A stretch of DNA of 64,000 nt from Bugula neritina (lineage: Eukaryota > Bryozoa > Gymnolaemata > Cheilostomatida > Bugulidae): the NCBI GenBank assembly GCA_964035545.1, contig OZ037773.1:5005251-5069250 (forward strand), given 5' to 3'. Position 1 is the stretch's first letter. Every line of letters starts with the position of its first letter. Both the position numbers and the translations under genes were made by a program. Below are positions 7,115 to 50,329 of the stretch, one piece after another. Under the pieces are notes generated by a model. That model ran no database searches and had not been told where the DNA came from. It was given only the letters and a program-made list of their open reading frames with translations.

Positions 7115-10100
7115 CAGCTTGAGTCATCCATCACACTCTTAGTGGAGAATATCAATGACCTCTTCATACTAAACTCACTGGACCCAGTTTCCTCATTCAT
7201 CCTAATATGGAGCTCTAGCACCATATCCATGCTATCCAACAGCTTCTCACGCTTTAAGCATGTGTGTGATATTCAGCTGCAAAATGGCTGCTATGAGTAT
7301 ACGATAGACAGCAAGGTGATAGCCAAGGTCGCAGGTATGCTCTCTATAACTCATACTTGCTGATTCATCTCATCATCTCTATTTGCTTTTCCAGTTTGAC
7401 TAAAACTTGATTTCATGCATAAAGTCGGTTTTGTTGTGCATTCAAATACAATAACATTTTGATTGTACTTTATACTAAATTTTATATAATTATGATTTAT
7501 AGTAAACTTATTCTTTTATATTATTGTGTTTTTGTACGAGGGCAGCTTAGTTTGTACTTTTTCTCAACAGAAGCAATTTTTTTAGTCAAGTAATGTGGTC
7601 TGCAGTATAAATTTGAAGACATTCAGCTGTTCACCAGGTCAAAAATGTTTTTAAGTTTATATATCTGTACACTGTTAGTCTGCGTATCTCATCTAATAGA
7701 AACGAAAGCAGTTTCTGCGGTGTCTGAGCTGTCCAGTAATAAGAACCGGTTAAAGAAAGTTGCCGCTTTGCTGGCGCAGAAGGTTCTGGACTATCTGATA
7801 CCCCGAGCCTGGATTGTGCTGAGGAAAGATCTTAGCATGGCTAACGACGGTGAGTTGCCAGCTGCGTAGAGAATGACGGTGAACCCTCACTCACCTTTGA
7901 TGCTCTTTTGTTACAGTTTTTTATTAACCCGAAAAGTACCAAAAAGTTAATTACTTCCTAAAAACAACATTTAAAGCGCTAGGCATTTTTTTGTTTTTAA
8001 ACAAATCAAATGGAGTGGTTCATAGTGTTGGCAGTTTTTAATGTCTAACATGTGGCATCACATTCACATACTTGCTAAAGGATGTGGTATGATAGCTTAT
8101 CAGTGTACTCTGATTCAAATCCAACACCTAATTTGTGCATTGTTATATGTCACAATTCTATGACTCTCTGTTTCTGGAATATGTAGTATCAATATCAAAG
8201 CCTTTGTTGGTACTAAATGAAACCTGTAACAGCCTGTTGATATCACCTTGTGAATCTATAGAACTTATGCTATGACCTACTGTATGGCACCTACATAATC
8301 TTAACTCTTCATGTCCTTATTAAGGGTGGTCTTGATAGCATGAGAAAGTTTAAGGCTGACCTAATCTAATTAGCATGGTACGAGTTTGAGATGTTAACAA
8401 GTTTTGTTATGTAGCAATATAGTAATATACCGTATTGTACTATAATATTTAGTAATATACAGTATTGTACTATAATATTTGGTAATATACAGTATTGTAC
8501 TATAATATTTGGTAACATACAGTAGGATACAGTCATACACATTGATATATTTTGTTTGACAAATTCTCTTTCTTATTAAATATATGATTTATGCGAAAAA
8601 TAAAAAATCGAGAACTTCAAAGCAGTGTTATTTATAAATACAAATGCTGTGTTGGTGACTGTACCATTGTGTTTCAGCTGTTACCAATGACCTCATCAAA
8701 GGGGCACCTAAATCAACCAATCAGATGTCTAAGGGAATGTCCTTGTTGAAATCAATGGGCTGGTCTGAAGGTAATAAAGTTACACTGTGAACTCTTGGAC
8801 AAGTTGTTGTTCACTCTCTTTTTATGACTCAATCTAGTAACACATTCTATGATAAATAAAGCTTCTTCACTTATTCATTTCAACAGTTTCTCTAACAAAA
8901 TAACTATAAAGCAAAACAAATTTTATTAGGATGAACCCTTAACCCTCGGCATAAAATGATGATTTTTTATTAGTTTTATGGATTCCAAAAATACCAAAGA
9001 ATTTTAAGCTCTTGGTAAAAATTAACTAAATTGATTAGTGCGCTACTTGATGTTTCATTTCTTGCTAGTATGTGTTGTTTAGTACAGTGTAACATGGCTG
9101 ATGTTGAAAAGGATCTATGGGGTTTATTCTACTAACAAATTGCAATTATGAGGCTCTGGTAAAATTGTTAGATTATGCATAAAAACTCTGATGTAACATC
9201 TCATTGGCACTAAAATATTGTTAGGTTCTGGCCTGGGTTCCAACAAACAAGGTATTAAAGAGCCTGTTCAGGTGGAGACAACAATAAATAGACAAGGTGA
9301 GTCATAAATAATAGAACAGTTGATTTAATTTAGCCAAATCAATTTATTTTATGATTATATTAAAAACAAGGAAAATGTATATATGTTATATATATCATTT
9401 AGTATTTAATGTTTGGCTAAATATAAGGCTTTATTACATTGAAACACTTACTTTTCCAAGCATATCTGTTGTGACAAATGCTTAAATAATTACTCTAATA
9501 TAAAATAGTGTTATTTAGTATATCCAAAAGAAAGTATTGTATTATTCTATCTAATATATTGTCATGTTATAGCTTACTACTATTATATGAGGCAGTATAA
9601 TGCAGTTATACTACCGTATTATCGTACAATAGGACGGAATTTTGTTTGTAGGCTTCGGATTTGATGACGGCAGCAAAGGTCTAAAGAAATGTGCCCACGA
9701 CTTCTTCAGCTCCTATATAAGGGAGGGGAGGTGCGACGTCCTCGTCTTCAGCAGCGAGTTTACCTCCGAGGACAGGAAAATCCTCCACCAGGTTTCCCGG
9801 GCTTACGGACTCGACAGCAAAAGCAGGGGCTCTGGTTCCAACAGGTGCTTGTCGGCCATCTGTATTTTAAATAATTTCATTAGGAGTTGTCGTTTCGCTT
9901 CATTTGCTTACATTTCAGACCATTTCCTTGTGTGTAATCATAGTGCAGTGTCATTATTGCTGTGCAATAGTTGGGAAAATATTGCTTGTTTAAGGGATGT
10001 TTCTAGAAGTGTATTTGGCTGTATAATCAGGTTGGCACATTATTTATGACATCACATACTTGTTTTTAAACTGAACTCTACTGCTGTATAATTTATGGGG

Positions 10101-12847: not shown

Positions 12848-13057
12848 GAGCAGCCGTGGTCTAGCGGCTAAAGCACTGGCTTAGTAAACACGAAGTCATG
12901 GGTTCAAACTCTAGTACATGCCATTGATGATGTTAGGAAGAGCATCAAGTCATAATTGCTCCTGTTTCACATATGATTAAGTCCTTGGCCCACTTTGAAA
13001 AAAATACCCCATTCCATCAGGGGTTTCTCACAGGAATAGTGACTATAAACTTGCGTG
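12848..13057 (+). mobile_element. tRNA-headed SINE
   Basis: Starts GAGCAGCCGTGGTCTAGCGG (A-box-like), has GGGTTCAAACTC (B-box-like), a central block GTTAGGAAGAGCATCAAGTC, and the conserved tail CAGGGGTTTCTCACAG followed by GACTATAAACTTGCGT. It shares these blocks in order with four other copies in this window. Confidence 0.88.
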
Positions 13058-15330
13058 ATTTCTTTTTGTAAGTATGAAAATAGTATTTAGTATTCGAGAT
13101 CAGCAATTTAAATCATCATCAACTGCAAAAATGTTATGTCCATCTTTGATATATATTTAGCATTCAACTGCATCCCGAAATTAAGTTGATAGTAGACTAC
13201 TTATAAGGTAACATTTCATGGGTGATCAGTACATGCAAAGGAAGATTCTAAAAAGATGTGACTAATATCTGATAATAGTAATCACAACAGTAAAATATAT
13301 TCATTGCAATAAATGCTTCCCATGTTTTTAATTATCACCAACAGCCAACTTAGGTTTGGCTTATTTGTTGATGCTAAAATGAAATTTAACCTTAAATTAT
13401 TCAAGTTACTAACAATGATAAATATCAAAGATAAAATGATAGTGAGTATATAACATAATCATGAGCGTTGCCTTACTATAAAGAATCAAACTAAAACACC
13501 TGTAAATTTAGCTTTTGATTTACACAAGTAAACCTGATTCGTAAGTAAATATGAAAATAATACATGTGGTAAACAGATAATTTTAAATTAATTATAACAA
13601 TTTTAAATAATCAATTCATATATTGATTACTTTGATCAACAAAATGGGTTATAAGGGTTAAAATTGGCTAGTGATACTGATTATGATATTACTAGTAGCT
13701 GTAGTGACTCTAAATTCAGTTGAGTGTCTGCTCGAGAACAAAATTTAAAAGGTGCCTTTAACTTTTCGAGTTAGCCTTTTTAATAGTATTGATTTTTCCA
13801 CTATTTTTCAAATTTTTTGAAAAAGAAGTAAAAAAAAATAATTGAAGAGATATTATTGTCCTATGAGTGTTTCAGTAGAAAAACAAAAGTTGAAAATGAA
13901 AATCAAAACTTTTGTTCCAACTTGAACCAGAAGTGTAAAATTTCTTATAAATATAAGTGAGTATAACTATAAGCAGTAGAGTACTATAATACTAAAAGTT
14001 GTATTAATACTAAACTTAATCTATAAGTAGAAGTATAAAATTACTATTAGTATTAGTAAAGTAGTAGTACAAGTATTACTATAACTATTACTGCGTTTGT
14101 ATCGCTATTAATCTATTAGCAATTGGTATGAGTATTAGTTAATGTTATTATTAGTAACAGTGCTAGTGTAGCTTGCAATTTATCACCCTGAAAGGGAATT
14201 ACTATCAGTCATTATGTATGTGTAATTCAATAAATGACTAAATCATTATACCTTTGAATATCTTTGAATACTTTTGAAGATATCAATTACAAGGAACACT
14301 CAATGTTATAGACGCGCCTCATTTGGTTTACAGTGTGAAATTTTTTTGACTACAGGTTAAGTAAAACTTGTGTTAATTTTTGTACATGCTTTCCTGGTGT
14401 CTCTAAGACTAATACCAATGGCTTTGGTAAGAAAACACTAAAAGCAAAGGACTAAAACAGTCACTGTCAGGATCACTATGAGTATGAGTATCATTAGGAC
14501 TGTATGAGTATGAGTATCACTGGGAGTATAATTATCAGAATTAGTAATAGTTAGTAAATTAGTATCACTCCAAGTCTATCAAATTCACTTTCAATATCAC
14601 TGTCAGCATCCCTATCAGTATAAATGAAACCATTTGGAATATAATGCGGTTTATAGTCTTTAGCAGATAAGCTACAAGCTAACCTGAGGTGATTGTCTAA
14701 CTGCCTTACAAGCATTCGGATTTCCTACCAGCTTGTACGGCTTGGATATTGGCTATTGTGAGAGTGAAAGTAAAGACTGCACAGGGGACTCTTACGCAGA
14801 CTGTCGAGTAAGTAGGACCTTACATTTCACCATTAAAATCCAAATACTAATAGTAATATCAATACTAATAGTAATTATTAATACTATTACTATTAGTATT
14901 ACTATCAGGCTTAGCATTAGTATCACATTTACTTTTAGTTTTACTACATTATCATTATGATATTCATATTGATAGATTTACTTTTAGTATTATTATTCAG
15001 TATTGCTATTAGTATTACTATTACTATTAGAGTATTAGTATTAGTATTAGTAATACTGTATAACTTAAACTATAAGTGTATTACTATTAGTATTAGTATT
15101 ACCGTTACACTTACTGCATTAGTATTACTATTAGTATAACAATATAATTACCAATTAGAATTACAATGTTAGTCGTAATGATAATGATATTCATACTGAT
15201 ATTCATATTGGTAATGTATACTTCAATTGAGTTATTGACTAAAACTCAAACTCAAAGTTACTTCAATTTGAATTTCAAGGCATACAACAGTCAGATATTT
15301 AATAATCATAAAACTTTGTTATAGTTGCGA
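13058..15330. other. Intergenic, no gene seen; simple repeats
   Basis: AT-rich sequence without supportable exons. The ATTAGTATTACT-type repeat recurs at about 14040-14130 and 14820-15140, generating I/T/S-rich frames that I regard as spurious. Confidence 0.55.
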
Positions 15331-15631: not shown

Positions 15632-15703
15632 TCCCATATGGTCTAGGGGTTAGGATTCCTGGTTTTCACCCAGGCGGCCCGGGTTCGATTCCCGGTGTGG
15701 GAA
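15632..15703 (+). tRNA. tRNA-Glu (UUC anticodon)
   Basis: A 72-nt cloverleaf without intron. Acceptor stem TCCCATA pairs with TGTGGGA (one T-G wobble). The anticodon stem-loop CTGGTTTTCACCCAG gives anticodon TTC. The T-arm CCGGGTTCGATTCCCGG is perfect. The A box (TGGTCTAGGGG) and B box (GGTTCGATTCC) form the internal pol III promoter, and a T-rich stretch (TTTT at 15707) serves as terminator. The CCA end is not encoded, as expected for a nuclear eukaryotic tRNA gene. Confidence 0.97.
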
Positions 15704-16774
15704 CATCTTTTGCTTCAGCTTTTCTTATTTTTTCTACTACATGTTTCAAACTGTTATATTTCTTTATGAGTGACTATAACATTAGGCTTACCAATCAGTA
15801 ATACCTTGAAAAATGTCACCAACGACTTCCATGTACTCACAATTCTTGAAAAATCCTTTTCGATATAACATGCATATTTGTAAATTTGCTTCTACTTCAA
15901 TTTTTTATTTTGTAATACTATACTTATTGAATCAGTTGTTCGAACTATGCCAACAAAAAGTTTCTAAGAAAATATCAAATAAGATATTTTTCAGCCTCCA
16001 GTTAACTTAGAAGATCTATTAAAGTTTCATGTTGTCAATAATGATCTAGATGTCCGCAGCGAAAAGAGTATTGAAATATTTTTAATCAACATTCTTCTTA
16101 AATATGTTATTGTTAGAAAACTAGAAAACATGTCAGAGAAATGTCGACCAGAACCATATAAACACTTTGATTTCGGGAGGGCATTAAGATTATTATTGCT
16201 AATATGAAGTCTTAATTTCAAGTATACAAAAAATTAAAGTTCTTATATATGTGGACAATAATTAGGCTACAAACCATACTACCTGTTCTCTGCTACAAGT
16301 ATCATCTAAGATCAAAGGGTTGAAGGTCACATCTGTCTATGATTAGTTGAATTGGTCTGCTATTAAATTCAATTTTGGGGAGATGATTTGTAATTGTTTC
16401 GACCAGAGCTGAAAATTTAGATTAATTTCAAAAACAAAAAATAAAAATAATAATTTCTCAAAAAATTAACATATTAAGTTTGTATTAAACGTTGTATTTG
16501 TTTCTGGTTCGAGGCGGTAAACATAAACGCGTGAGTGTTGGTCATCGAGGTTATTACTTTCGCATTTATCAGTCGTCCTGATACTCGCAGTCATTGTCAC
16601 CATCATTTTTATGATAATACTAAATATAATAGTAATAGTGAGTTTATGAATAAAGTTAATAAACTAATTTTAATCAAAGCTACTATGAATTAGGCATTTA
16701 ACTTTGAATTTACATTGACTATTAAGTCAAATCGCTATTGACCCAGAGCTCTGAGTATAACAATTACATTTATA
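15704..16774. other. Intergenic / upstream of ZFYVE19-like gene
   Basis: No gene seen. It should include the promoter and 5' UTR of the gene starting at 16775. No TATA box or other core element can be distinguished from the AT-rich background. Confidence 0.5.
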
Positions 16775-30046
<13,272 letters not shown>

Positions 30047-39436: not shown

Positions 39437-42400
39437 ATGCAAGCTGTGTACATCGTGTACGCTCTGCTTGGCGCAGTTGGCGTGACCTTGAACTTGGTCA
39501 CACTAATTCTTCGACGAAGATCGAGTCCGACAAGCTCTATCCGCGGAGTATCAGCGGAGCATGGCATATGTCTGGTGATTTCCAATCTCTCCCTTACAGC
39601 GATCTCTATCGCTGGTTTAGTCGCTTCTTTCCAAGATTTATTTCACTGGAGCTCAGTGTTGTGCAATGCTGCCGGTTACATCACAGTCTGTGTGGTGCTG
39701 ACTCACAGTTGGATGTACATGCCGTCCGCTGTCGTTCTGCTGGAGAAGGAGTACCATAAGGTTCGGCTGAGATCATACCAGGGACTGACAAGTCGCATTA
39801 TCTGGTTTATATCGGCGGCCATCTTGGTTACTTGTGCTGTTCTTGTATCAATTTGTTACATTCCTATCACCGAGTTTCAGTTTAGGAGGTGAGTAAATCT
39901 ATATATCTCATTATATTCTTTCATTTATTTACTTCATGAAGTTTTATATTTAAATGATATTGCCTATTGGTATTGATGGTGTAGCAAATCAAAGCTCACC
40001 CTACACTGCTAAGTGAATTCACACTCTGGGGATTTAGACTACATCAGTAAAAACTGCACTCCTTTTTAGTAAAATATGTTTTAAAAATGAAAACTTTCTA
40101 ACTACCAATAAAATTATTTTTAGAAATTCTGAATAATTAATAACTTAGCATTCAAGACTTCCTTTTCAAACTCAAACCCTTCCTATTATAGTTAAATTCA
40201 TAGTTCAAAAGAGGAGTCACATCCTAACTGTATCAACAATACTCAGTATTCAGAACTTACTATAGCTTTATTTTATTTAACTTCTGTTTCTCAAAGGCAA
40301 TGATTATAGTTTTAAAAACAGTTGAAGAGGTTGTTGCCCACATTTGTAATAGAAATTTGGCTGTGCTGGGGGAGGGGTTTAAAATTTTCTTCCTTTTGAA
40401 ACCTGCACTCATTGCTACCAGAATTTTTAGCAAAACGCTAAATTATTTAAAGCACAGAGTATGTTGGCCAAATATCTTGAAACTCTCTTTATATTAAAGT
40501 GAAAATGAAAGTTTTTTTGCCAATTTTTTGTTCCAAAGAGCATTAAGATACATAAAACTTATAATATGCTTGTATTTCCAAGTTCTCGATAGCAAGTTAC
40601 GTACAACCATAGAAAGTACACCTCATTCGAACAGCCATTGAAGAATTATCCTACAAATATATTTCTTTCTTGCAGACAGCTGTTGTGTTTGCCTGTTGCG
40701 TTCTCCAGCCAACCCGGGTACGAGTACACTTTGCTGTTACTCGCTCTGGTGTGGTGTGGAGTTCTCTCCACCTGGCTCTGTGTCGTCGCTTGGTTTATCA
40801 CTTATAGGAAGAACCGAGGGACTGTGAGATACGTAACGGAGCACCATAGGTCATCAGTGTCAGCATGTGTGGAGGTGGGCAACAATACTGGTTTTGACTA
40901 AGTCAGAATTTCCAATAAAATTTTAGTGTTGGGTACCAGATATTAAACTTTAAAAGAACAGATTTGACTATTGTAATTAGAATGACTATATGCAAATTAG
41001 AAACTTGTTTTAAGAACTTGTAAAAATGACATTTAGTAATGTAATTACCGTAAGTAAAGTAATACCTACTGCATAGAATAACAGATATATGTATAGTAAT
41101 GTATGCGCAAGTTTTTCACTAGATTAGAGTTTTGTTGTAATTCAAAAACAAATAAATTGATTTCTATATATAGAGTCAATCTCTACCCATGACAAAAATA
41201 AACTTAGTTTAACCAATGGAATAGACATTCTTAAGATTTTAACTAATGAAGTTATAATTATTTTATTATCTGCTGTGACAATTTTTTGCTTTGACCTTGT
41301 AGATGGCAAACATTAAAAGCAGTTCATAAAAATATATTCTAGACTTTGAGGCAGCGCACAGCATAGTTTCTCTAAGATTAGAAAAATTGGCAAAACATCT
41401 TTGGGTGGATCAGTAAATAAAGTTTAACCCTGCAATAACTGACATACTAAGAATAAATTCGTAGTAGTAGTTTATTGCATCACAATTTTCTATATGGAAA
41501 TTTTTCCAACTGCAATATGAAGAGCATTAAGGGAGCAGCCATGGTCTAGGGGTTAGGGGTTAGGGGTTTGGCTTAGCAAGCATGAAGTCATGGGTTTGAA
41601 CCTCAGTAAAGGCCATTGGTGATTGTAGAAGAAGTATCCAGTCATAATTGCTCCTGTGCCTCATCTGAATAAGTCCTTAGCCAGCTTTAACAAAAACCCT
41701 TTTTATCAGGGGTTTCTCACAGGGATGGCGACTATAAACTTACGTAAGAATATGAAGAGCATTAAACTGCAACATAAATCATGGTTACAGTGAATGTTTG
41801 TTTACATTAGAAGATGTAAATCAGTTCTTGTTTGGTTTAAATATTTTGATTAAAACTCATCTAAGGCATAAATAATTTCTTTTTTTCATGTCAATTGTAA
41901 ATGTAGTACAGAGTATAATATGGTAACACAGCTATTATGTAACATGTAAATATTATAATACTGAATACAGGTGGCTGTCAGCTTCTCTCTCTGGACTGTA
42001 GTTGTCTCTCTTCTGTCCATCTATTTCTGGAGGCAGCTGGAAGACTTGTTACACGCCGCCATCTTCTTATCTCTTCTGCACGCAGCTGGTCACCCAGGCT
42101 ACTCTCTCCTTTCCTATTGGCTCACCAGGTCACATGATGAGGTCAGCGCTGTTTTGAACAGAGACACGCCCACTACTCTCTCGGAGCTCTCTCTCATGAC
42201 AGTCAACCCTGTGAGTAGCAGCAAACTGTAGACTGCACAATCAGTCTCTACCTTAACCTTTCACCTGTCGTATTAGTAGTCAACAATTTGAAACTGTTCA
42301 AAGCAAAGTTGGTTTGTTGTTAGTTATTAAGTTTCTTTATATTCTAATTTTCATTCTATCTTTTTTTAACTAAAAGCTAATTTTTTTCTTTTTATTTTTC

Positions 42401-45400
42401 CCAAGTTTGCACTTTTCTTTAAGCAGTCGTTACTGTTATTTTAACTTATCTTAACTCTTATTTTATGTTGTTTGCTTAAAAAGAGATAGAATAATTTGTT
42501 AACTACTATTTGATTATAAGAGTTGCAAATTGATTGAGTTCTATTTTCACTGCCAACTGGTCAAGCAACTGTTTGTATGTTTGCTGAGGTGATAGAAACG
42601 TTTTTGTTCTAACAGATGACAAAGCAAATTAGGTAATTGGCTAATTGAATGTCAAATTAAGGCTGTATTGGAAATTGATATGGCAGTCTAAGAGCTTTGT
42701 AACTAAATATCTTTCGTCTCCATATGCAGGATAAAAGTGTCCTAAAGTTTCACGGAAAATGGTTGGGCAGGTTTGGGGAAAAGGTAGAAGCAGTTATTAA
42801 AGTTTACAATCAAGATCAGAAGACAAAATGGATGAGAGAAACTAGGGCTATGTTAATTCTGAAAAAGACTGAGCACCCTAACATAGTCAAGTATTTGTGG
42901 GTGGGCCAAGGAGGTGCCTTTACGTTCCCTACTCATGGACTTAGTCAAGAATCTGCTGAGCTTTTAATAAAGCCAAGCCAAAGGTTGGTCTACCTACCTC
43001 ACCAATGCTGCTAATAGGATATTTTTAGTAAAAATACATTCAATCAACAATTAACTTTCCCATTTTCATTAGCATGAAAGAAAATTACTTTTGAATGTTC
43101 ATCAAATTTAAATGGACTGGAAATATCATCTTTAGGTTTTATTTCACTGATTACATGCAAAGTAAGGGTAGTAACTAGAAAAGTTGAGAAAAGCCTGCGT
43201 TCTAGATTAGAACTGTATAAAAATAAAATATGTGCCGTAAACCAAAATTTATTAAAACAGATTCAAGAATTTAGGCTATAGTTTACCAGTATACCAAATT
43301 TAGTTATCTTTGCATAATAGTTGCAACTCAAGTTACATTTATCTGAGTAATAAATCTATGAGTTTAGTCACCAGCTATGCACAGCATGGCTTTACCCTTG
43401 AATAGATGAGAATACGTAGAGAAATTGTCTACACCTGATGGGGAAGCATGGAAACTGCCGCACACACTTGAAATATGAATAATATTTTGAAGACACACAA
43501 TTTACATAACTCTGTAGACTGGTGGTCTATTAATCTATATTTTTTGCTCAAACATATAAATTCTGGTAAACATATTTCTGAAAGTTGAAACTGTAAAATT
43601 ATGTAAGCGGCTCACTTGTGTGTGAACCTTTGCCTTGAGCGAACCTTGATTTAAATTTATGCAAATTCATAATTTTTGAAATGCATTTAAAAGCATGTCA
43701 TATTTATGAATTTATTATAATTATAAGTAGGTGCTTCATGACCTGGTAGGTTCAGCCCTCTCGAGTTGGGTGTGTATAGATTAGCATAGAGGGCAAAGGT
43801 CAAGATATTTTAATACAGTATTTTTAGACGGGGTTTTCATTATACTCTACATATGTCCGTTAGAGTGTTATAGTTTGTATTGCAACCAGTGTAATTTATT
43901 TTCTTTACTATTTTATGAGTTCGGAATTCAAATGTCAAAATTTAATGACTATATTTCTTCCAATACCTACATTTCACATGGTGCGAATCATTACCAAAAA
44001 AATGGTTATGGCGAAGTTCCAATTTTATGAATTATGGTTGAATAATATTATTAAAAATTTGAGTAGTAATACTCAGTCCCTGGTAACACAAATAAGTTCC
44101 TCTTTAGAAAATACTTGACTTTTAATAATATTCAAATGTTTTGATTCTGTCTATAGTGACAGGGATGCTGTAATGTGGAAGTGATGTAACTTGATTAGTC
44201 AACTAACCTATAACATTAAATCTCTCATCCCAATTGCTGTAGCCACTTCAAATTTATGAATTATTATTGTGTTTTCTATATTTTGACCTCTTGTACACAG
44301 AGTTTGTTGAGTTTTTTGCTAGTTTTGCATGCATAATAATATGGCTCAGTGTCAGGTGGTGAAAGCTGCTATAATAGTCGGTTTTAATCAATTTTTTTCG
44401 GGGAAATTCAGCAGTGAGTCATTATTTTGTATCAATGCCTCTGTTCTAAATTAAAACTGTAGCAAAGAAATTTACTGGGGATTAAAATTTACTGAGGAAG
44501 TTAAAGAACTTATATATGTAAAAAAAAGCAAACCATGTTTGGTTATGTTATACATGTTTGATAAAAATATTTTTTAGCTTCAATATTACTGGGTTTTAAA
44601 ATTTATTTCTCCAATAATAATAATTCTTATACCTAAGTCTTTGGTGCATCTCCGGAATTTGTTGAAGGAAAAATCAAATAAGCATTTTAAATATTTTTGG
44701 CTTTGGATAAAGAATAGTTTATAGTAACAAATCTAAATACAGGTGCAATGAGTGAATGTATAAAAATTAGGTAACAATTTTTTGTAAATATTTATGAGTC
44801 CTGGGTTTATATTCTTTACCCAGAAAGAAATATTTTTGGTAATTTCCTTTCAACTTATGTTGACCATATTTTTCATAAATAATGGGAGTTGTCTTTTCTC
44901 TTTCAATATCCAAAATTCGTTCAACCAAGATTCAATAAAACTGATAGTTGTTAAGCAGCTTAGAAAATTTATATTGTTTTGCAATGAAAACATTATTAAC
45001 CAGTTTTTTTGTAAATTTTACCCACAAAAATAATTTTTGTACAAAGAATTTTACACAGCTACCTTTTTCAAATAAATACTATATTCAACTAAATAATAAA
45101 ATTTCTATACAATTTTCTTCTTTGCACCTGCTTGATGACAAATGAAACTCGAATCTATAAATGTCTTTTAGAAAGAAGGACTTCCCCATTTTTCCATTTT
45201 GAGATAAATTAACTCATATTCAATGTGGTTTGCTGAAACTGTTTCCCCATCAGCTTATTATATCTACAAATATAAATATATGTCAACAGCTGTTGTCAAT
45301 TCTGTAGGATGGTATGTGTGGAACACTACAAACATGGCTCTCTGAAAGATCTTCTGCTACACACCCCCAGACTACTTACTGGCAGCACTCTCCGGCACAT

Positions 45401-48400
45401 TGCCATAGGCGTTACGTCAGCACTGGCTCATCTACGGCAGCTACACATTGTACATAATAAACTTTGCTCTCGGACTATCTTCATCAAATCTATAAGCAAG
45501 GTGATCAATTTATGCTAACTATCTATTTTGTAAAAATAAACTTTTCATTGGATGTTTGGAAACAGTTGCATCGAATGAAACCACAACCATAAATTCACTC
45601 ATATGAGCATCCATTCATATAATGCAAAGCTATGGAAACCAGTATATAAAGCAGCAATTTAAATAAAATTCAGTTTAACCTTTTTTCAAATAAAATTTTA
45701 TTTTGACACTGATGAGTAATTTTATTCCAAAAAAAGTTTTTTTATAATTTTTTTCCGTTTTGTTTGTTTTTCTTGCAAAATATGCTTCTGAGAATATAAC
45801 TGGAGTCTCGGCACTTTATGAATGTTGACCAGTCACAGAATTACAGCACAAAATGGTTCCCAACTATCACCTGCAACATCACTGTTTAGTATATGGTTAT
45901 TCTAGAGTGGAACTGTTGTCGTAGTTGTGGGCAGTTTTGAAGAGAGCGAGCAGATAACTCTAGACCACCTCCGGAGTAGTGGAGATCCTCCATCTCGGGA
46001 TCATTGGGGAGCAACTATTCAGTTAGACCAGAAGTTTGCTGCTGATATTCGGAGTTATGCCCTCTTTATTTTTGAGCTTGTCGCTGCCTGGAACAAACAT
46101 AACGGTATGTATTGCTAAATGTGTCACAGTTATTCTGTTTGCATAAATGTTAATTAATTAGCAAAATTATGTTTGAACCAATTTTTGGAGCGGCCGTGGT
46201 CTAGGGGCTATAGCTATTGATTTAGTAAACCGGTAGTCACGGGTTCGAACCCAGATAAAGGTCATTGTTGATGTTAGGAAGAGCATCTCTTTATACCAGG
46301 GTTTCTCATAGGGATAGTGACTACCAACTTGTGTGAGTGAGTTTGAAGAAATTTTTGAATATTTTTTCATGTTTTGCAAATGTGTGTATCTGAAGTTGTC
46401 CTCTTTTCTGACAAAATCAGACCATTTCCGAGAACCTTGTAATTTATGACATGGATAACCGAGAAAATCTACTCAAAGTGTAATTATTGATTTTTCACCA
46501 AATTTTGAAACAATTTTGTGAATATTCAGATCATATGAAAGTTGTAAGCTGTGTAGTTGAATAAAATGTGGTAAGACAACTGACAAAGTTTCAGTTGTGT
46601 TCTTTTTATGTCGGATGTTTTGAAGAAGCATGAACCTTATAAAATATTATTGTTATCAAGTTTGCATATGTCAACTAACTGAGTAAGAATTTTGCCCGTT
46701 GAAAATGTCTGTTTGCTATGGCGCATATAGATAACTGAATCTGAGTAAATATAGCATGTGCAATAAGGATTTCGATTTGTTTCTATAAAATATATACTCT
46801 CATTTCACCGTTTAGTAAAGTTTGCAGGTGATCAGTGACCTGTTCTGTTGTTAGGTCAGCAAATCAAAGCACCGACACACACAGAGGCTGCTGCTGCTGT
46901 CAGCGTAATAAATGAGATGAACTTACACACCCTGCAGAGCTATCATTTGGGTGGCAAGAGGAAAGTTCGACAGAACAAGCCACCTGTAAAGTCCAGGTAA
47001 GCGTATGTTAAGGTGTATACATTTTATATGACTGTTTCTTTGCAATGGAAATTTTGGTTTATTTATTTCTTTATCATATGCTTAGTTTATATATATTTTA
47101 TTCTGGTGAAAAATTGTATTTGAATTTTATATAGTTAATTTACGTCATCAAGTTATTTGCTTTGAAAAATAAAAAAAATTATGTTTTATGACAGTCATCA
47201 AAAGTATAGATTTATTCTAAGTTGAGAAGTTTTACGAAAGAATTAATTGTAATTTAAAGGTTTGTTACATGTTATGTAGAGGTCTATTACATGTTATGTA
47301 GAGGTCTGTTATATGTTATGTAGAGGTCTGTTAATTGTTATGTAGAGGTCTGTTACATAAACCCGAGTTCTGTGAGATTGAGGAAGAGCACCAGTCCCAC
47401 CTCCACCTCCAACGACTGGTGGATGGAGAGGAAATGGCTATAGAAATGGATGATAGCTGTCCAAGTCATCAACAGGAAACCAGCGTGTTACCAGTGGACG
47501 TCATCGTTGACCAGTTTACTTATAACAAGTAAGAGAATTTGCATCTCTTGTTAATTAAAAACTTCAACTATATATGTAGTAGTATAGACTATGAAAGGAA
47601 GTTAGCAGCTGCAGTGTATTTCTATTTAATTGCTTTACTCGATATTTAACTATGTAACTATGTTTACTAGTATTTTATTGATGATTGGTTAAAGAACTGA
47701 AATATTCAACTCAACTAGTTTGCTGTGCAGTCCATGTTACGTTGAATAACCATGAGCTAGTGAAAGTTATTCAGATAACTGAAGTTGATAAAATATCTAG
47801 TCACGTGATATAAAATAGTACGAACATTAACTGATGGTTGCTGGTAGTTCAAACAGCTTTCATGTCAATGCAAATTCTCAGAAAAAATTTTTACATACAA
47901 AAGATTTGTTTTGTTTAGTTAATCCACCAATCAGGTTGCAGGGACATGTTTATACCATGTGACCAACATAGATTTTAACACAATGCGTAAAATATGTCAA
48001 AATTCAGTATTTCAACTCCTAGAGTCATGTTTTTCTTCATATTCCTAATAATTTCTAAGCAACTTAGACTATGATGTTCAGTAATGGTTCATGTTTATCT
48101 TTTTTATTTAAATAATATACTCACATTTTATCCATGCGTCTAACCAATATTATATTCCAGAGCTCGCTATCACCCAGTATTCAGTAGAACAGGAAGTAGT
48201 TCCGCCTGCAGCACCGACTCCGGCTATCCAAAGAGTCTTCTGTCTAACGCTGTCTCTAACGGCAGCGACTTGCATAGTCTGACAACTGCAGGTACAGTTT
48301 TTAAATGCTTTCTTATCCATGTGTCCTATATAAACTCAGTTGTACCAATATTTAGTGTAAAGAGTCATGTCATATAAAATTTCAATTTTGCAAAAATGTA

Positions 48401-50329
48401 TTATTTTTAACAAGTAGGCTGTTGTGTTTGCTGATTGAACTTAAAGGGTTTAATCGAAAAATTCCACTTTTCATTTTACAACTTTTCAAATCTAAAGGAG
48501 TTGTCCGATCTTATATTTAAACTCTTGATTTCTAAAGCTAAATTTAGTAATAGAAATTCGAGCTAAGCAAAATGTGGTTTTATATACTCAATTGAAAAAG
48601 CTGTAGATTGCTTCTAACTACCGTTGTATTGGCCACTTTCGCTTTTCTTATTCATTTTCCATAATCATAAAACTTATGTGCGAGTTTTCATTGCTAACTG
48701 ATTTTTCAGTTTTAATAATCTTTACCAAAATTATCAAATAGTTTTTTATTACTTTTATTGATTTGCAACTTCTAAATCGTTCTGAAGTTTACATAAGGAA
48801 ACAGTTTGTGTGATAATTTATTAAACCTGTTTGTTGTTGACAGATTACGCAGGTGCTCCCTGTTATTTGACCAATGACAACTCAAGACACGAAGCAACTC
48901 GTAAGCCATCACCCGATATTTACATCATAAGTCAGGAACGCAGTCACCACTCACCCAGTAAAAATGATATTCAGCTTGGTAAGCTCCCAGTCAATGAACT
49001 GACCAATTATATGAAAGCAAAGCAGACTTTACCTCGAGACATTCTGGAAGATTGTGAGGAGTATCGTCTAGACAATAGCCTTCATTCTGAAGATGACCAA
49101 ATCTATGAGACGATTGAAAAGGAAGTTCAAGAGAAAAAAATTGGAAACACGCCAACTGGGCTCAATCTAGTTGAACTGGCCGAGAAAGTAACCGAAGACA
49201 TCAATCAGTTTTTGAAATCGAGAACAAACTCGTCTTGCAGTTCACCAGCTTCTAGCACGATAAAAGCTGTGACGCCAACCAGCGAGTCACCCAGTCATGT
49301 GACCAGCTGCAAGGGATGTATTCAAACTCGCCAGTTGTCTAAACTCACAGTTAACAGAACAGCGTATAAGAATAGTCTTGCTGGCAGGCAAAAAGAAAAT
49401 ATAAATAGTACTTTTCTCGCTAGACCAGGTGTCTGTAGAGCTCAAATATATTATAGTAGGGAGTTGTCTTCAACCTATGACATCATCACTTCACATGTAT
49501 TGCATGTAAATAGCAAAATAACGAGAAAGTATGTGAACCAGTACATGGCGAGTATAGATGAACCAGCAATCAAACAGGTGAGGCAATTTGAATACGCCTA
49601 ATATAAATATTTCAACCAGAAACAATAAACATTTTCTGTTATTACAATTTTTCTATCATGAAATTTCTGCCAGGTTTTAATTTTCTTAAAATTTTAAACA
49701 TAAATAGTTTTTGTCACTCATATTATGTAAACTGAATTTCTTTTGATTAGTTTTCATTCCGGTGATAAGCAAATTGTTGTTAAAGGGGAGATAATTCCTT
49801 GTTGGTTGTTTTGAAGGTATCAACCTATAAGGTTATAATATTGATTGTTTTAGCATGTCTTCCATGGTCTAAAAACAAAGCTCACTATGTGTTCTCAGGC
49901 TATATAGTTAAATATATGTATGTACAGATCAAAGATAAATGCTCATGCATTGTTGTAAGCAAAATTATAATGGAATGTTTTAATGCAATAGCGTGGTATC
50001 CCACCCCTTTCCCTTTACTTCCCACAGGAAGATAAAATTCGAAAACTAGATGTAGTAGGTTAAGGTCGAAAGTAGTAAATATGATCATGGCTCTCTTTCT
50101 AGAACTTACTGGAAGCCTGTAGTCACATAGAAGTCCCAGAATGCTTTGCATCCTGTACTGCATAATACCCTGTGACATATGCGGGCAGCATTTTGTATAA
50201 CCATTGTACATATATTATCTGTGTTTGTAGTTGTTGATGTTAACTGAACAGTGTTGGCTACAGGACCCGGTACCTTCAGCTGATTCGATCATGTCACAAC
50301 TAAGAAACGATTTCACCTTGACCTCTTGA
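39437..50329 (+). CDS. 7TM receptor fused to a pseudokinase domain
   Basis: Eleven in-phase exons: 39437-39888, 40676-40874, 41971-42210, 42730-42983, 45308-45500, 45906-46104, 46855-46996, 47346-47528, 48161-48291, 48844-49577 and 50231-50329 (TGA). The product is about 941 residues. Residues 1-297 hold seven hydrophobic segments with class A landmarks: an Asn in TM1 (GVTLNLVTLIL), FHWSSVLC before TM3, LEKEYHKVR in the DRY position, and HPGYSLLSY at the end of TM7. The Asp of TM2 is missing (SNLSLTAIS). Residues 298-512 resemble a kinase: GKWLGRFG, AVIKVY (K321), the alphaC Glu334, EHPNIVKYL, and ADIRSYALFIFELV (alphaF, D493). HRD is replaced by HNK at 431-433, the catalytic-loop Asn by Thr, and DFG by GSF at 455-457. 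Residues 513-909 are a Ser-rich insertion. Residues 910-941 (LLMLTEQCWLQDP) resume the kinase C-lobe. The likely role is ligand sensing with non-catalytic scaffolding, which is inference. Confidence 0.75.
41533..41748 (+). mobile_element. tRNA-headed SINE with perfect target-site duplication
   Basis: Copy in an intron of the 7TM-pseudokinase gene: head GAGCAGCCATGGTCTAGGGG with a local GGGGTTAG duplication, B box GGGTTTGAACC, tail CAGGGGTTTCTCACAGGG. It is flanked by a perfect 17-bp direct repeat AATATGAAGAGCATTAA (41514-41530 and 41749-41765). Confidence 0.94.
46187..46345 (+). mobile_element. tRNA-headed SINE, internally deleted
   Basis: Same head (GAGCGGCCGTGGTCTAGGGG), B box (GGGTTCGAACCC) and tail (AGGGTTTCTCATAGGGATAG) as the other copies, but about 50 bp of the central part after GTTAGGAAGAGCATC is missing. 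It lies in an intron of the 7TM-pseudokinase gene. Confidence 0.88.
47258..47357. repeat. 22-bp tandem repeat copying a 3' splice site
   Basis: Four units of GTTATGTAGAGGTCTGTTAC plus AT start at 47271, 47293, 47315 and 47337. The last one contains the acceptor TATGTAG before exon 47346. The other units place identical acceptors before 47280, 47302 and 47324. Inclusion of any upstream unit reads GTT ATG TAG in the entering frame, so it would stop translation. Confidence 0.88.

What the first reader, a model, noticed from the sequence alone, without database searches (positions are those of the whole stretch)
39437..50329. A 7TM receptor joined to a pseudokinase in one predicted gene
Eleven exons join in phase from a class A-like 7TM region (residues 1-297) straight into a kinase-like domain. 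The junction between TM7 and the kinase (exon 42210 to 42730) is a clean phase-0 GT-AG intron, and exons on both sides show strong family signals. 7TM-kinase fusions are known to me from protists (GPCR-TKL and GPCR-PIPK types), but I do not know a standard bilaterian family with a rhodopsin-class 7TM plus a dead kinase. If real, it could be a receptor that scaffolds rather than phosphorylates. The fusion rests on my manual splicing.
Basis: partly seen in the sequence, partly recalled or inferred. Interest (0 to 1): 0.88.

Follow-up and report, generated by a model that had tools for sequence, protein, structure and literature searches.

The report
Receptor fused to dead kinase, bryozoan
A gene in a sea moss (bryozoan) animal appears to join a seven-helix membrane receptor directly to a kinase-shaped domain that has lost its catalytic residues, a combination otherwise reported from protists, choanoflagellates and sponges; it still needs RNA proof that the two halves are one transcript.

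Summary
Ten exons at 39437-49577 rebuild as drawn: GT-AG borders, one open frame of 909 codons. Exons 1-3 encode six clear and one weaker hydrophobic helix, C-terminus inside. They match no Pfam, PDB or protein-collection entry, so 'class A' is weak: the fit to the genome's own class A receptors beats 499 of 500 shuffles, but 2 of 9 adhesion/secretin receptors score higher z and real class A receptors far higher. Exons 4-6 encode a tyrosine-kinase-type domain (PF07714, E 5.6e-12) that is a pseudokinase: HRD is HNK, the loop Asn is Thr, DFG is SFE. The 42210/42730 join is the best of 12 open in-frame joins by consensus, although a small splice matrix ranks its acceptor poorly. No RNA and no relative could be examined; own-genome searches found no second copy. 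Chromosome lengths identify the genome as Bugula neritina, a bilaterian. [quoted passage not shown] Most likely a real 7TM-pseudokinase receptor acting as a scaffold; the main rival is two neighbouring genes.

The parts
39437..39888 (+). Exon 1: start codon, TM1-TM4 (N19, C76, W123)
   Evidence: Open frame with an in-frame TGA just upstream of the ATG; hydropathy; stop-free frame
40676..40874 (+). Exon 2: second extracellular loop with C155, TM5, third inner loop
41971..42210 (+). Exon 3: TM6, TM7 (HPGYS where NPxxY would be, by eye), juxtamembrane linker
42211..42729 (+). Intron 3, the decisive 7TM/kinase junction: donor GTGAGT, acceptor tctttcgtctccatatgcag
   Evidence: best of 12 open in-frame joins; donor rank 44 of 692 and acceptor 394 of 667 with a leave-one-out matrix from 8 introns; no AATAAA/ATTAAA inside, which is weak evidence (0.95 expected)
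42730..42983 (+). Exon 4: kinase N-lobe, VIK lysine K321, putative helix-C E334
   Evidence: PF07714/PF00069; own-genome kinase profile 43.8 bits over residues 315-504
45308..45500 (+). Exon 5: hinge, helix E and catalytic loop, HRDLxxxN changed to HNKLCSRT
45906..46104 (+). Exon 6: DFG changed to SFE (S456), helix F with D493
46855..46996 (+). Exon 7: after the recognised part of the C-lobe, basic stretch
   Evidence: the Pfam match stops at profile position 200 of 258 (10)
47346..47528 (+). Exon 8: tail
48161..48291 (+). Exon 9: tail, Ser-rich
48844..49577 (+). Exon 10: tail, polar, with YETI and STYDII
   Evidence: alternative terminal reading to the stop at 49599-49601 with AATAAA at 49624
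50264..50329 (+). Candidate exon 11 with stop (uncertain)
   Evidence: phase-0 acceptor giving 21 codons, then TGA

Best explanation
One gene of Bugula neritina encodes a seven-helix receptor whose cytoplasmic tail is a tyrosine-kinase-type pseudokinase followed by a polar, probably disordered tail of about 400 residues. Shown from sequence: open in-phase exon chain, hydrophobic segments with the C-terminus predicted inside, kinase homology, loss of the catalytic Asp, loop Asn and DFG Asp, good splice consensus at the join. Inferred: the receptor has also lost most standard G-protein switch residues (D2.50 to Ala, no Arg at DRY, P6.50 to Val, NPxxY to HPGYS), so it probably neither couples G proteins in the usual way nor phosphorylates; a ligand or partner would change the helix bundle and thereby the pseudokinase surface, which docks or allosterically controls an active kinase or adaptor, with tail tyrosines as possible docking sites.
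For: Exon chain and frame. Topology: six segments at mean hydropathy 1.64-2.64 plus TM7 at 1.15, a value that 6 of 20 own class A receptors fall below and 12 of 20 exceed at TM7; K+R 13 in inner loops versus 3 in outer loops, loop limits set by hand. Kinase: PF07714 5.6e-12, best PDB hit TYK2 E 1.1e-4, own-genome kinase profile 43.8 bits. Dead residues: alignments, positions in 58. Join: donor 42211 is one of 6 GTRAGT sites in 11 kb; acceptor 42730 is among 17 of 667 AGs with C/T at -3 and at least 12 of 16 pyrimidines; best of 12 open in-frame joins by these two measures. The only in-frame ATG between the upstream stop (42700) and exon 4 lies inside the acceptor and has a poor context, C at -3 and C at +4. 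No other 7TM-to-kinase neighbours on one strand within 10 kb among 161 7TM and 67 kinase matches compared.
Against: No RNA and no orthologue. A leave-one-out matrix from the gene's other 8 introns ranks the intron-3 donor 44 of 692 and its acceptor 394 of 667, the worst of the nine acceptors. Strand beta-1 and the glycine loop of the kinase cannot be recognised across the junction, and adding 13 residues of exon 3 did not raise the Pfam score (49.8 against 50.1 bits), so domain continuity across the join is not shown. Lack of a poly(A) hexamer in the gap is uninformative (0 seen, 0.95 expected). TM7 is the weakest helix; two segments inside the kinase exons are more hydrophobic (1.45 and 1.25). 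The last C-lobe helices are not recognised. The 7TM part has no known family signal. The neighbour control used Pfam-detectable matches and would miss a pair as diverged as this one.
Confidence: 0.6

Rival explanations
1. Two neighbouring genes: a stand-alone 7TM ending VSSSKL-stop at 42231 and a pseudokinase gene starting MQDKSV at 42724 or at an unseen upstream exon.
For: Exon 3 is open through the donor to a stop 21 bases on, and an ATG precedes exon 4 in frame. No recognisable kinase beta-1 in exon 3. Poor rank of the acceptor with the small matrix. Lack of a poly(A) hexamer does not speak against it.
Against: GTRAGT donor and strong pyrimidine tract exactly at the phase-0 join; only 492 bases between stop and ATG; weak start context. 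Random placement gives 0.17 same-strand 7TM-to-kinase pairs within 5 kb for the matches compared.
Confidence: 0.24
2. A real but young chimera or transcript without a lasting function, specific to this species or lineage.
For: No relatives found, both halves diverged, C-lobe incomplete.
Against: 909 codons without a stop over 10 exons suggest that selection kept the frame; I infer from the few candidates (129 for the kinase part) that the protein collection holds few animal proteins, so absence there says little.
Confidence: 0.12
3. The 7TM part is not a GPCR but another seven-helix membrane protein (can hold together with the fusion).
For: No 7TM family match; against 20 own class A receptors no better than shuffles by HMMER, by hhalign only 22 columns aligned, and no better than shuffles in a first block test.
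Against: Ordered helix-block test z 3.4, 1 of 500 shuffles reaches it, and the aligned columns keep N1.50, C3.25, W4.50 and the TM6 Trp, with a Cys in loop 2; but in that test the TM6 and TM7 blocks score negative and the TM7 block is placed behind TM7. Predicted topology N-out, C-in.
Confidence: 0.2

Closest known systems
GPCR-TK of choanoflagellates and sponges (PMC12716839, section 26 read in full)
   Same: 7TM followed by a C-terminal domain of tyrosine-kinase kinship; holozoan
   Different: Reported from choanoflagellates and sponges and described as tyrosine kinases; here bilaterian, catalytic residues lost, long polar tail; homology could not be tested
GPCR-TKL(/K) of acanthoecid choanoflagellates, oomycetes and amoebozoans (PMC12716839 section 26; PMC5784254 passages)
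   Same: Order 7TM then kinase-like domain
   Different: Different lineages, TKL or other non-tyrosine kinase types; no DEP domain among the Pfam matches here
JAK-family kinases (two stretches of TYK2 aligned)
   Same: Best PDB hit; catalytic loop IVHNKLCSR resembles LVHGNVCGR of the first TYK2 stretch (that this is the JH2 pseudokinase is recalled)
   Different: No second kinase domain or other JAK domain in the Pfam scan; JAKs are not fused to a receptor (recalled); scores are weak (10.5 and 12.2 bits per stretch)
Class A (rhodopsin-like) GPCRs
   Same: Aligned N1.50, C3.25 with a loop-2 Cys, W4.50
   Different: No PF00001 match; DRY, the CWxP Pro, NPxxY and D2.50 not kept

Membership tests
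Class A GPCR (PF00001) | Profile match to PF00001 | tested here: not met
   0 Pfam families at E<=10
Class A GPCR (PF00001) | Fit to own-genome class A receptors better than other 7TM families | tested here: inconclusive
   z 3.4 (1 of 500 shuffles reaches it) against -0.6 to 5.9 for 9 adhesion/secretin receptors, 2 of 9 above the query, and 8.8 to 47.8 for 20 class A receptors left out in turn (gap limits differed between the groups); HMMER rank 250 of 312 listed; first block set z 0.04 (53)
Class A GPCR (PF00001) | D2.50, DRY, CWxP, NPxxY motifs (motifs named in the PMC12716839 passages; numbering recalled) | tested here: not met
   A55, no Arg at 101-106, W225 kept but V227 for Pro, HPGYS 258-262; TM7 is aligned by eye only
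Class A GPCR (PF00001) | TM3 to loop-2 cysteine pair | tested here: met
   C76 and C155 present; the bond itself is not testable
Protein kinase fold, tyrosine-kinase side | Curated profile match | tested here: met
   PF07714 45.9 bits, cut-off 23.1; PF00069 26.9 bits, below its cut-off 31.7
Active protein kinase | HRD Asp, loop Asn, DFG Asp (motifs recalled) | tested here: not met
   K433, T438, S456
GPCR-kinase bigram | 7TM and kinase-like domain in one polypeptide | tested here: inconclusive
   In-phase join with good splice consensus, poor matrix rank, no transcript data
GPCR-TK of sponges/choanoflagellates | Kinase domain in the same clade as theirs | not testable with these tools

The most novel reading that the evidence does not exclude
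A bilaterian receptor in which both classical outputs are lost: a 7TM bundle without the G-protein switch motifs, fused in one chain to a catalytically dead tyrosine-kinase-type domain, so that it signals only as a ligand-controlled scaffold; the first GPCR-kinase bigram in Bilateria and independent of the protist and sponge ones.
Probability: 0.34. Interest if true: 0.8.

Novelty: new variant of a known kind. Interest (0 to 1): 0.56.

Why it matters
[quoted passage not shown] A bilaterian case would show that the architecture can arise again in animals, and with a dead kinase it would be a natural test of whether a 7TM bundle can control a kinase fold directly as an allosteric scaffold, without G protein or catalysis.

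Tried and rejected
Relatives in the 5.8-billion-protein collection: full length (the 8000 candidates sharing most words were scored, none at E<=1), residues 285-513 (129 candidates, none at E<=1), residues 1-275 (5967 candidates, none at E<=10). I infer that the collection holds few animal proteins, so this says little about other animals.

Paralogues in the own genome: 10 of 10 matches to the full protein and 3 of 3 to the 7TM part are the gene's own exons; of 4 matches to the kinase part one is elsewhere, a weak piece on C186 (E 0.0155, with in-frame TAA, so perhaps a ciliate contaminant). The first look of these searches is loose, so a distant paralogue could be missed.

Idea that beta-1 of the kinase is encoded in exon 3, which would put the fusion inside one exon: rejected as unproven, best ungapped score 0.01 bits and no gain in Pfam score.

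Class A by HMMER profile, by hhalign in global mode (45, only 22 columns) and by a first block set that wrongly included an N-terminal block (53, z 0.04): all failed. Redone with seven hand-chosen helix blocks (55, z 3.4); that choice was made after seeing 53.

A leave-one-out splice matrix from 8 introns went against the acceptor; a consensus count not trained on the gene (63) was used next, and both are reported.

Poly(A) argument: at first I took the lack of AATAAA/ATTAAA in intron 3 as support; one search shows 0.95 expected by composition, so it is dropped.

Contamination: rejected, the window lies on a 10.9-Mb chromosome; the small contigs with TAA/TAG inside kinases are a different matter.

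The neighbour count used 161 7TM matches typed from the 143 and 42 listed, and 67 kinase matches on C1-C9 typed from the longer tables; rows were left out, and the gene itself is in none of these tables, so it is a rough control.
Full report
What is there. In 9 of 10 exons the used frame is the only one of six without a stop.

Whose genome. Contig lengths of the window's assembly seen here (C1-C6, C8, C9: 35.64, 33.58, 32.42, 24.80, 17.72, 16.05, 13.35 and 10.88 Mb; C295: 15,248 bp) equal 8 of the 9 chromosomes and the mitochondrion printed for Bugula neritina tzBugNeri2.1 (passages seen); C7 was not seen, and the held copy has 215.85 Mb in 295 contigs against 216.00 Mb in 320 scaffolds. The window lies on C9. 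The COX1 on C295 reads AGA/AGG at serine positions (the conserved residues are recalled), as expected for a bilaterian invertebrate. [quoted passage not shown] So the animal is a bilaterian, not a sponge, which matters because sponges do have GPCR-kinase fusions.

The 7TM half. Six segments have mean Kyte-Doolittle values of 1.64 to 2.64 and the seventh 1.15; the TM7s of 20 class A receptors of the same genome range from 0.48 to 2.14, 6 of 20 below the query. Two segments in the kinase exons reach 1.45 and 1.25, so hydropathy alone does not prove TM7. Inner loops carry 13 K+R, outer loops 3, so the C-terminus is predicted inside. No Pfam, NCBIfam, PDB or protein-collection match was found. Against a profile of the 20 class A receptors the query scores no better than pattern-keeping shuffles by HMMER (rank 250 of 312 listed). 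With seven ordered, hand-chosen helix blocks it beats 499 of 500 shuffles (z 3.4), but 9 adhesion/secretin receptors reach -0.6 to 5.9 (2 of 9 above the query) and class A receptors left out in turn reach 8.8 to 47.8. That alignment places N19, C76, W123 and W225 on N1.50, C3.25, W4.50 and the TM6 Trp, and C155 lies in loop 2; D2.50, the DRY Arg and P6.50 are not there (numbering recalled). Its TM6 and TM7 blocks score negative and the TM7 block falls behind TM7, so HPGYS for NPxxY rests on the eye. A GPCR-like fold is likely; class A is possible and not shown.

The kinase half. Residues 306-507 match PF07714 at 45.9 bits (cut-off 23.1), and a profile of the genome's own kinases gives 43.8 bits over residues 315-504. 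The first PDB hits are tyrosine kinases (TYK2 E 1.1e-4, PYK2, ROS), at weak scores, with IRE1, BRI1 and LIMK2 further down. The VIK lysine K321 and the helix-F Asp D493 remain; HRD is H431-N432-K433, the loop Asn is T438, DFG is S456-F457-E458 (kinase motif names recalled). The glycine loop is unrecognisable and the match ends at profile position 200 of 258, so the last C-lobe helices are absent or unrecognisable. This is a pseudokinase with high confidence.

Are they one protein. Exons 1-3 are held together by the run of helices and exons 4-6 by the kinase profile, so intron 3 is what needs proof. Its donor is GTGAGT, one of 6 GTRAGT sites in 11 kb, and its acceptor is among the 17 of 667 AGs with a C/T at -3 and at least 12 pyrimidines of 16; the pair is the best of 12 open in-frame joins by these two measures. 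A separate kinase gene would have to start at an ATG that sits inside the acceptor with a poor context, or at an unseen exon. Against: a small matrix from the other 8 introns ranks the donor 44 of 692 and the acceptor 394 of 667, worst of nine; exon 3 is open to a stop 21 bases past the donor; there is no domain continuity across the join; there is no RNA. The gap holds no AATAAA or ATTAAA, but only 0.95 would be expected by composition, so this is no argument. Elsewhere no 7TM match is followed by a kinase match on the same strand within 10 kb among 161 and 67 matches compared; random placement gives 0.17 pairs within 5 kb. That control is blind to pairs too diverged for Pfam.

Relatives and literature. 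No relative was found, in collections that I infer hold few animal proteins. [quoted passage not shown] Passages of PMC5784254 call GPCR-bigrams rare or even nonexistent in metazoans. Among the rows listed by searches (20 of 2,341; 20 of 25; 15 of 32; 4 of 4; 12 of 46; 12 of 18) I saw no bilaterian case; for papers not named above I saw titles and abstract starts only, and most subscription journals are missing from that library.

How it probably works (inference). A receptor with almost no N-terminal domain, most standard G-protein switches lost and a dead kinase attached is best read as a conformational scaffold: the helix bundle positions the pseudokinase and a roughly 400-residue tail (62% polar, charged, Pro or Gly residues) to bind other kinases or adaptors. 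Two YxN and one STYDII site are possible docking points, but such motifs are common by chance.

Verdict. It would be a new variant of a known kind (GPCR-kinase bigram) in a new branch of animals and with a dead kinase. A transcript read across 42210/42730 would settle the main doubt.

Noticed in passing
window 46186-46340, 41532-41741, 12848-13058, 21270-21481: Dispersed repeat that looks tRNA-derived (SINE-like; box sequence recognised by eye, ARAGORN calls no tRNA there) in introns 2 and 6 of this gene and elsewhere; 1087 first-look candidates in the genome, 40 scored.
   Followed up: partly
L040 (G000:C6:11172572-11176912): A mitochondrial copy of about 4.1 kb on C6, 98.6% identical to the mitochondrial contig C295.
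   Followed up: partly
G000 small contigs, e.g. C188, C173, C64: Kinase genes with in-frame TAA/TAG but almost no TGA, suggesting ciliate contaminant contigs in the assembly.
   Followed up: no
L041 (G000:C17): Bacterial-looking contig with what seems a cbb3-type oxidase gene (recognised by eye), perhaps from a symbiont.
   Followed up: no
window 47242-47358: 22-base tandem repeat whose last copy supplies the acceptor of exon 8.
   Followed up: no
window 23889-25082: Open frame with a fucosyltransferase (PF00852) match, E 4.8e-10.
   Followed up: no
window 9633-10046: Open frame with an R3H domain match, E 7.9e-9.
   Followed up: no
window 15632-15704: A tRNA-Glu gene.
   Followed up: no
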